Below are positions 61,813-63,450 of a stretch of 64,000 nucleotides of DNA, one piece after another. Numbering within the stretch: the first letter of the stretch is position 1; each line of letters begins with the position of its first letter. Origin of the DNA: Promethearchaeota archaeon (lineage in GTDB: Archaea; Asgardarchaeota; Lokiarchaeia; Sigyniarchaeales; SOKP01); contig JAHLWS010000077.1 of NCBI GenBank assembly GCA_019057795.1, forward strand, positions 1 through 64,000. Direction: 5' to 3'. The notes under the pieces are model-generated. The model saw only the letters and a list, made by a program, of their open reading frames with translations. It searched no databases and was not told where the DNA came from. The translations under genes and the position numbers were made by a program.

Positions 61813-63450
61813 ATGGCGGATAGAGATAAAAATCTACAAAAATTTAGTAAAATTCTAAATGTATATAATGAAATTAATTTAGACAAAATGGCTAAATTAA
61901 TCGGATTTAGAAACTCTATAGATCTAGAACAATGGATTCTAGATTTGCCAGAAAAGTATCACACATATTTAACAATTAGAGGAAAAAATGTTATTATTCA
62001 ATCTAATATCTCGGAAACGATCGATGACCTATTAAATGAATTTGAAAAATGGGATAGTCGAAAAAGTGGAAAAATAATAGAAAGTATCGATTTAAGAAGA
62101 CCCTTTTTTAGAACAACATCGAAAACCGAATCATCCATTTTAGGAGATTCAAGATTAGGCTCTGCAGGTAAAAAGTTTCTTAGTTTATTGTCTACCCATA
62201 AAAGCATTACAAGAAACCGATTTATTAAGGTCTTTGAACTTGAAGCGCTCGTAGATATCGATGATTGGCTATTAGGCCTTCCGAAAGAATTAGGTATTTT
62301 TCTTAATGTAAAGGGCGATGTTATAAAATTCGAGCAAAAAGCTTCAGATAAAGCAAAATTGAAATTAGCCGAACATTTTGATGATTGGATTACAGATTCA
62401 ATGAATGAGTTGACAAAGATTGATGAATCCGCTGTTAGTAAAGAAATAAGAAGAATACCAAGTATTTTAGGAGATGGTTATCACGATTTTTTTAAAATGG
62501 ATATTAAAAAAGAAAAAAGAAAATTTCTTATTCTCCACTTAACAGGTGAAAACCAATTTACGACAAAATCTGATTATGGTGATAGAACTTATACGGCATT
62601 TACAGTTAATATGGATGTTAAAAAGAGTGTCTTAGATTTCCAGCCTGATATAATAGAAAAGGCAAAAAAATCAGTTATACAAAGTGAAATTTATCAGAGA
62701 AATGGAAAAAGGTATTATTATGTAAGCCCCGCTGGTCGTCATATTAGCCGACTAATTAGAACATCGGAAAAGGATTTTCAAATTAGGTTAAAAAACCTTT
62801 TGATTGAAGTGGTACCAGCAGAAAACTTCTCATTTTCAATTCTTTCTCCATCAAGAAAACAAAATATCTTACTTGTATCTTCACCTAGAAAAATGTGTGT
62901 TAAGTGTGGTGATATTTTTACACCTGTAATGTGGGATGGGTGGGAAATTAAGTATCTATCAACAAAAAATGTTTATATCTGTGAGGAATGTAATCCAAAA
63001 CTAAAAAAAACTGTTCAAGAAGAAAATGTTAATAGAGCTATGTGTGAGTTAAAAATTAAAAAAGTAATTTCAAAAAAAGCAAAGATAAGAATCTTTTCTA
63101 TATTAAATCTAATACTTCTTCTGGCTGTTGGATTGCCTTTATTATCATATATTTTCCCTATTATTATATTTACTATATTAGAGGTTTATTTATTAATAAA
63201 ATGGAAACTCATCTCTAACCAAATTAAAAATATGAGAACCGAGGAGTCTATTCGAAAAAAAGTGGTTTTAAATAGTGTTAAGCAGTATGATGGAAATTTA
63301 TTAAAAAAAAAATTTATACCTAAATTTTGTAAACAATGTCGTTGGTTTGATAAAAGCGACCAGAAATGTCATGTTGATGAAGAATCAGGAGAGATCTACG
63401 ACCATTTTAATTTAAATGGTGAAAAAGAGTGCTTCGAGCCAAGAAAATAA
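61813..63450 (+). CDS. Membrane protein with two N-terminal wH modules, zinc-binding motifs and TM helices
   Basis: INLDKMAKLIGF...LTIRGKNVIIQSNISETIDDLLNEFEKW; second copy LNVKGDVIKFEQKASDKAKLKLAEHFDDW; KCGDIFTP..CEEC; TM IFSILNLILLLAVGLPLLSYIFPIIIFTILEVYLL. Confidence 0.75.
   Translation: MADRDKNLQKFSKILNVYNEINLDKMAKLIGFRNSIDLEQWILDLPEKYHTYLTIRGKNVIIQSNISETIDDLLNEFEKWDSRKSGKIIESIDLRRPFFRTTSKTESSILGDSRLGSAGKKFLSLLSTHKSITRNRFIKVFELEALVDIDDWLLGLPKELGIFLNVKGDVIKFEQKASDKAKLKLAEHFDDWITDSMNELTKIDESAVSKEIRRIPSILGDGYHDFFKMDIKKEKRKFLILHLTGENQFTTKSDYGDRTYTAFTVNMDVKKSVLDFQPDIIEKAKKSVIQSEIYQRNGKRYYYVSPAGRHISRLIRTSEKDFQIRLKNLLIEVVPAENFSFSILSPSRKQNILLVSSPRKMCVKCGDIFTPVMWDGWEIKYLSTKNVYICEECNPKLKKTVQEENVNRAMCELKIKKVISKKAKIRIFSILNLILLLAVGLPLLSYIFPIIIFTILEVYLLIKWKLISNQIKNMRTEESIRKKVVLNSVKQYDGNLLKKKFIPKFCKQCRWFDKSDQKCHVDEESGEIYDHFNLNGEKECFEPRK

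What the first reader, a model, noticed from the sequence alone, without database searches (positions are those of the whole stretch)
61813..63450. Membrane-anchored double-wH protein: possible DDRGK1/UFL1-like platform
It carries two tandem wH modules, a C-x2-C/C-x2-C zinc site, a hydrophobic hairpin (TM) and a Cys-rich tail (FCKQCRWFDKSDQKCHVDEESG...ECFEP). In eukaryotes the UFM1 E3 complex is ER-membrane anchored through DDRGK1 and built from wH repeats, so a membrane wH protein beside UFC1/UFM1-like genes is suggestive.
Basis: inference. Interest (0 to 1): 0.78.

Follow-up and report, generated by a model that had tools for sequence, protein, structure and literature searches.

The report
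Membrane winged-helix protein beside UFM1-like genes
An Asgard archaeon carries, next to genes resembling the human UFM1 protein-tagging pathway, a membrane-anchored protein built from two winged-helix modules; it is not the archaeal counterpart of the human UFM1 ligase (that gene lies elsewhere in the genome), but it belongs to an unnamed family of mostly membrane-tethered or receptor-like proteins that recurs beside these UFM1-like gene sets and may anchor or aim them.

Summary
In detail: one 545-aa ORF with two winged-helix (wH) modules (both modelled as wH), a CxxC/CxxC site, a hydrophobic segment of about 40 residues and a Cys-rich tail. The wH type is right: a 37-member profile of the module finds human DDRGK1/UFL1 as its best PDB match (E=2.4e-5), followed closely by PCI wH domains (eIF3e, CSN2). 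The assignment is not: the target matches neither the DDRGK nor the UFL1 family, has the opposite topology to DDRGK1, and has no full-length relative in 232 genomes of its phylum. The genome's real DDRGK1/UFL1 homologue is another gene on the same contig, about 42 kb downstream. The new point is the module: about 45 proteins carry it, 26 with transmembrane segments, others with LRR or TPR repeats. Module clusters lie within 10 kb of the UFC1-like E2 far more often than expected (7 of 52 clusters in other genomes, 0.28 expected), even with a profile built only from E2-distant copies. Best explanation: a lineage-specific membrane-tethered docking protein of a UFM1-like system, using acidic, probably non-DNA-binding PCI/DDRGK1-type wH modules. 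Docking is inferred, not shown. The target is a divergent member that this unbiased profile does not recover.

The parts
61813..63450 (+). Target gene, 545 aa: two N-terminal wH modules, unknown middle domain, CxxC/CxxC site, hydrophobic segment, Cys tail
61816..62076 (+). wH module 1 (residues 2-88)
   Evidence: profile A1 E=2.3e-23, but module 1 is itself in A1; AF2 wH fold; PF01399 PCI E=0.0049, below cut-off
62149..62409 (+). wH module 2 (residues 113-199)
   Evidence: profile A1 E=2e-21, also a member of A1; AF2 wH fold
62896..62991 (+). C-x2-C ... C-x2-C probable zinc site (C362, C365, C390, C393)
   Evidence: sequence; weak similarity to Cys sites of other Asgard proteins
63082..63210 (+). 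Hydrophobic segment of about 40 residues, probable membrane hairpin (residues about 424-466)
   Evidence: hydropathy
63328..63432 (+). Cys-rich tail C506..C540
   Evidence: sequence
59452..59718 (+). UFM1-like modifier, 88 aa, ends ...DIIDRGIVG
   Evidence: C-terminal VG conserved in 16 of 17 aligned relatives
59715..60257 (+). UFC1-like E2, probable catalytic C137 in MICHEHM
   Evidence: Pfam UFC1 E=7.1e-5; family profile to human UFC1 E=1.3e-6; Cys invariant in alignment
57270..58247 (+). JAMM-type peptidase (N-terminal part probably missing from the called ORF)
   Evidence: Prok-JAB E=0.003; longer conserved relatives
54536..55363 (+). E1-like ThiF/UBA5-type activating enzyme
   Evidence: ThiF E=2e-53
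53447..54529 (+). Conserved cassette gene, 360 aa, two CxxC
   Evidence: conserved next to E1/E2 in most loci
46443..47909 (+). Conserved cassette gene with tandem wH resembling ESCRT-II VPS22/VPS36; candidate partner or E3
47943..48800 (+). Conserved SPFH/Band 7 cassette gene
   Evidence: conserved
48815..50590 (+). LRR protein with C-terminal module
50598..51734 (+). LRR protein with C-terminal module
55538..57004 (+). LRR protein with C-terminal module
58287..59333 (+). Protein without Pfam match, with C-terminal module
60328..61762 (+). TPR protein with C-terminal module, split by a frameshift
63679..64000 (-). TPR protein with C-terminal module (361 aa, extends past the window to about 64764)

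Best explanation
The target is a lineage-specific, membrane-tethered docking protein of a UFM1-like conjugation system in a Lokiarchaeia-type Asgard archaeon. Its two N-terminal PCI/DDRGK1-type wH modules face the cytosol and bind protein partners, not DNA; the hydrophobic segment near the C-terminus anchors it; the Cys sites bind metal or a further partner. It works like the DDRGK1 part of the eukaryotic ligase (holding a wH scaffold and charged E2 at a membrane) without being its orthologue. Related proteins at the same kind of locus carry the module as a constant C-terminal domain behind LRR or TPR repeats, transmembrane bundles or extracellular receptor-type domains, which suggests an interchangeable set of anchors and adaptors. 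Shown: architecture, wH fold by prediction, resemblance to DDRGK1/PCI wH, membrane bias and genomic association of the module family. Inferred: cytosolic orientation, binding to the UFM1-like machinery, and any effect on conjugation.
For: Architecture and predicted folds. Module profile A4: best PDB match DDRGK1/UFL1 chimera E=2.4e-5, DDRGK1 from the UFL1/DDRGK1-UFC1 structure E=0.001; a published study calls the UFL1/UFBP1 wH domains PCI-like and shows a scaffold-type mechanism (PMC9627666). Profile-profile link to the Asgard DDRGK1/UFL1 homologue E=1.4e-5, against 0.013 for the cassette's other wH protein. Recognition-helix region acidic on average (-1.4; target modules -2 and -4), against DNA binding. 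A UFC1/UFM1-like cassette lies next door. Module-E2 proximity with a profile made only of E2-distant modules: 9 of 58 clusters within 10 kb, 0.32 expected; without the own genome 7 of 52, 0.28 expected. Module proteins have TM segments in 26 of 45 cases against 78 of 357 background ORFs.
Against: The full-length target is an orphan: no other genome of 232 has it. Its own two modules are divergent and are not recovered by the E2-distant profile, so the statistics speak for its relatives. Most module copies are not near an E2, and about half the E2 loci have no module nearby. PCI domains match the module nearly as well as DDRGK1, so no specific link to UFM1 follows from the fold. No interaction has been tested. 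The TM comparison uses a simple hydropathy cut-off, loci partly chosen for carrying modules, and related proteins counted separately.
Confidence: 0.45

Rival explanations
1. The module is a general Asgard protein-interaction domain of sensors and receptors. The target is one of many signalling or stress sensors and has no working link to the UFM1-like cassette; both sit in the same variable, defence-rich genomic island.
For: Module found far from any E2 in many genomes and fused to giant surface-type proteins, one with solute-binding, beta-helix and TIR domains; the upstream 25-44 kb of the window matches defence genes HmaA/B/C, MkoA and DrmC.
Against: Enrichment at E2 loci holds across Loki-, Heimdall- and Sigynarchaeota-type genomes and at the second cassette copy on another contig.
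Confidence: 0.35
2. The target is a recent lineage-specific assembly: a locally duplicated module pair joined to an unrelated membrane protein, with no settled function.
For: No full-length relative; seven module genes within 15 kb, one with a frameshift.
Against: Long intact frame, both wH modules and all Cys pairs intact.
Confidence: 0.14
3. A membrane-bound DNA-binding regulator (one-component type) using wH domains as DNA readers.
For: wH fold; Foldseek also lists MarR and IclR-type regulators at similar weak scores.
Against: Acidic recognition-helix region in the target (-2, -4) and family mean -1.4; sequence profiles prefer PCI/DDRGK1 over transcription factors.
Confidence: 0.05
4. The target is the organism's DDRGK1 or UFL1 orthologue.
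For: wH type and membrane segment.
Against: No match to PF09756 or PF09743, wrong topology, and the 789-aa protein elsewhere matches both.
Confidence: 0.01

Closest known systems
DDRGK1/UFBP1 (UFM1 E3 subunit)
   Same: PCI-like wH as the working module; membrane anchoring; genes of a UFM1-like cascade nearby; best PDB match of the module family
   Different: DDRGK1 has an N-terminal TM, a helical region, one wH and a partial wH at the C-terminus (PMC9627666); the target has two complete wH at the N-terminus, a hydrophobic segment near the C-terminus and Cys sites; no PF09756 match
UFL1 (UFM1 E3)
   Same: Tandem PCI-like wH; top Foldseek hit of the two-module model (8ohd chain A), weak
   Different: UFL1 has a partial wH, five wH and a helical C-terminal region (PMC9627666) and is held at the membrane through UFBP1; no PF09743 match
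Asgard DDRGK1/UFL1 homologue, G000:C77:105446-107815 (789 aa)
   Same: Contains wH related to the module (hhalign E=1.4e-5)
   Different: Conserved gene (UFL1-family matches pass the cut-off in 98 of 232 genomes) with Cys-rich N-terminus, DDRGK and UFL1 wH and a VPS28-like C-terminus; no membrane segment found
PCI domains (eIF3e, COP9 signalosome, 26S lid)
   Same: wH fold and sequence of the module; 18 of 37 module sequences match PF01399 at E<=1
   Different: Module has a long last helix with a conserved IDxL...W pattern and is fused to TM, LRR or TPR parts; no helical-repeat PCI context shown for the target

Membership tests
DDRGK1/UFBP1 | Match to DDRGK family PF09756 | tested here: not met
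   no match at E<=1 for the target; one of 37 module relatives matches at 0.00051
DDRGK1/UFBP1 | N-terminal TM, helical region, C-terminal wH plus partial wH | tested here: not met
   wH at residues 2-199, hydrophobic segment about 424-466
DDRGK1/UFBP1 | PCI-like wH fold | tested here: met
DDRGK1/UFBP1 | Composite wH formed with UFL1 and binding of charged UFC1 | not testable with these tools
   no complex modelling available
UFL1 | Match to E3_UFM1_ligase PF09743 | tested here: not met
   no match for the target; the genome's match is elsewhere
UFL1 | Partial wH plus five wH and helical C-terminal region | tested here: not met
   two wH in residues 1-208; remainder shows no UFL1 similarity by sequence; the rest was not folded
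PCI domain | PF01399 above its cut-off | tested here: inconclusive
   target module 17.5 bits against cut-off 22; a related module protein reaches 29.3
wH module family described here | wH with long last helix and IDxL...W pattern | tested here: met
   module 1 has I70, D71, L73, W80; module 2 keeps L and W; but the E2-distant profile A7 does not reach the target at E<=1e-4
wH module family described here | Encoded near a UFC1-like E2 | tested here: met
   E2 at 59715-60257, 1.6 kb away; family-wide enrichment

The most novel reading that the evidence does not exclude
Asgard archaea run a UFM1-like tagging system whose specificity comes from an interchangeable set of anchors and sensors that share one PCI/DDRGK1-type wH docking module: membrane tethers such as the target, LRR and TPR readers, and transmembrane receptors. 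Membrane-anchored wH scaffolds for UFM1 conjugation would then predate the eukaryotic ER.
Probability: 0.25. Interest if true: 0.85.

Novelty: new variant of a known kind. Interest (0 to 1): 0.6.

Why it matters
A 2023 survey reported UFM1 and UFC1 only in eukaryotes, with UFL1 and DDRGK1 arising in Asgard archaea (PMC10183829). Here UFC1- and UFM1-like genes sit together with an E1 and a JAMM protease in several Asgard lineages, including two complete genomes, and membrane-bound wH proteins of DDRGK1-like type recur beside them. If the modules dock on this machinery, the origin of membrane-anchored UFMylation becomes testable with recombinant archaeal proteins. Preprints were not in the library searched, so priority cannot be judged.

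Tried and rejected
Full-length relatives of the target: none in 232 phylum genomes nor in the genome collection scan. Direct PDB search with the target alone: only chance-level hits. Pfam and NCBIfam for the target: only sub-threshold PCI. The idea that wH modules are spread evenly in the genome: rejected, since matches concentrate at the two cassettes; because that profile was built from those genes, the test was repeated with E2-distant modules only, which also showed that the target itself is too divergent for that profile. The orthologue-of-DDRGK1/UFL1 idea: rejected. DNA-binding role: disfavoured by charge. The bacterial-type promoter and terminator scan is uninformative for an archaeon.

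Full report
What was checked. AlphaFold2 with a 41-row alignment gives two wH folds for residues 1-208 (mean pLDDT 79.8). The hydrophobic segment is one continuous peak of about 40 residues, compatible with a hairpin; that reading is inference.

Source. The window is part of a 198,765-base contig of a 4.95-Mb assembly. Close relatives of its E2 come from records named Candidatus Lokiarchaeota, and more distant ones from Heimdall-, Sigyn- and Hermodarchaeota, including the complete genomes CP104013 (Lokiarchaeum ossiferum) and CP084167 (Heimdallarchaeum endolithica). One record in that list is titled Patescibacteria; it matches at 91% and was not followed up. The assembly's own contamination estimate is 7.54%.

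The neighbourhood. A gene set is conserved with the E2 in most of the 21 genomes that have it: E1, JAMM protein, UBL, E2, a 360-aa CxxC protein and, in the nearer relatives, a tandem-wH protein and an SPFH protein. A second copy lies on contig C49 of the same genome. The E2 family profile matches only UFC1 in the PDB at E<=0.01 (best 1.3e-6), and its MICHEHM Cys is invariant in the 13-row alignment, although one further homologue, in L074, has Ser there. The UBL ends in VG in 16 of 17 aligned relatives. The target is not in the conserved set.

The module. Searching with wH modules from these loci and scanning the fetched neighbourhoods gave 46 distinct copies in about 45 proteins. In 36 the module is C-terminal; the target, with two N-terminal copies, is unusual. 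Partners are LRR or TPR repeats, several TM helices, or a signal-type hydrophobic start, an extracellular part (beta-propeller, PPC, solute-binding plus beta-helix), one TM and then the module; one such protein ends in a TIR domain. Some neighbours of other cassettes are closer to DDRGK1 in order than the target: N-terminal TM then wH, for example L134:4013-4594, L069:2774-3307 and L062:8570-9409, the last with a second, weaker module.

Relation to known families. The 37-sequence profile A4 finds the DDRGK1-UFL1 chimera 8b9x first (E=2.4e-5), then eIF3e (6.7e-5), CSN2 (2.5e-4) and DDRGK1 of 8c0d (0.001). 18 of 37 members match Pfam PCI and one matches DDRGK. Foldseek of the two-module model puts UFL1 of 8ohd first, but at E=0.016 with TM 0.25, level with Rpn12 and COP9 chains, and nothing passes 0.001. 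The module is therefore a PCI/DDRGK1/UFL1-class wH, not specifically DDRGK1. The literature describes the UFL1/UFBP1 wH domains in the same terms (PMC9627666).

Membership. The target has no PF09756 or PF09743 match. The genome's homologue of both is G000:C77:105446-107815, 789 aa from its ATG, with PF01399 E=8.9e-24, PF09743 E=5.1e-17, PF09756 E=1.8e-16 and a VPS28-like C-terminus; its family profile matches the DDRGK1-UFL1 chimera over positions 142-345 at E=1.3e-11. UFL1-family matches pass the cut-off in 98 of 232 genomes, far more than the 21 with the E2.

Association statistics. With the first profile, leaving out the two genomes that contributed E2-near modules, 6 of 51 modules and 4 of 44 clusters lie within 10 kb of an E2, with 0.28 and 0.24 expected. 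With a profile made only from E2-distant modules, 9 of 58 clusters are near (0.32 expected), and 7 of 52 without the own genome (0.28 expected; Poisson P about 2e-8, or 2e-6 with doubled expectation). Genomes are related, so these P values are too small by an unknown factor; the loci nevertheless carry different module proteins. The target's own modules are not among the matches of this second profile; its link to the family rests on the first profile, which contains them, on single-sequence matches to other Asgard proteins (best E=1.9e-11 in G009) and on the fold.

Mechanism. Acidic recognition-helix regions argue for protein rather than DNA contacts. By analogy with UFL1/UFBP1, a wH scaffold that brings charged E2 to a membrane is the most economical role. 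Binding, orientation and effect on conjugation are all inferred.

Verdict. Observation confirmed; interpretation right about the kind of wH and the association, wrong about identity. The gene alone would be a modest orphan; the module family beside a UFM1-like cassette gives it interest.

Noticed in passing
G000:C77:105446-107815 (L104:5447-7816): A 789-aa protein that joins DDRGK1-type and UFL1-type wH in the order of the engineered 8b9x chimera, with a Cys-rich N-terminus and a VPS28-like C-terminus.
   Followed up: partly
window 59452-60257; L065, L068, L069, L076, L079: UFM1-like UBL and UFC1-like E2 overlap by a few bases here and are fused in one ORF in several relatives, so the UBL would need cutting free, perhaps by the JAMM protein.
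   Followed up: partly
window 54536-60257 and relatives: UFC1- and UFM1-like genes in Asgard archaea, including complete genomes, in contrast to a 2023 report that they are confined to eukaryotes.
   Followed up: partly
window 60328-61762: TPR-module gene split by a frameshift near a run of A at about 61007-61015; real, phase-variable or assembly error not decided.
   Followed up: no
window 25428-44698: Defence-type genes upstream: HmaA, HmaB, HmaC, MkoA-like helicase, DrmC-like PLD protein; also a RNase III-like gene.
   Followed up: no
L138:5098-10731; L139:1572-12431: Giant surface-type proteins (1877 and 3619 aa) with the wH module after a TM segment; the first also has solute-binding, beta-helix and TIR domains.
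   Followed up: partly
window 46443-47909: Conserved cassette protein whose model resembles ESCRT-II VPS22/VPS36 (Foldseek E=3.4e-4).
   Followed up: partly
G000:C77 from 67832 (L103:7832-19999): Open frame of more than 4056 codons running past the fetched stretch.
   Followed up: no
L166: A contig titled Patescibacteria carries a fragment 91% identical to the Loki E2, possibly a misbinned contig.
   Followed up: no
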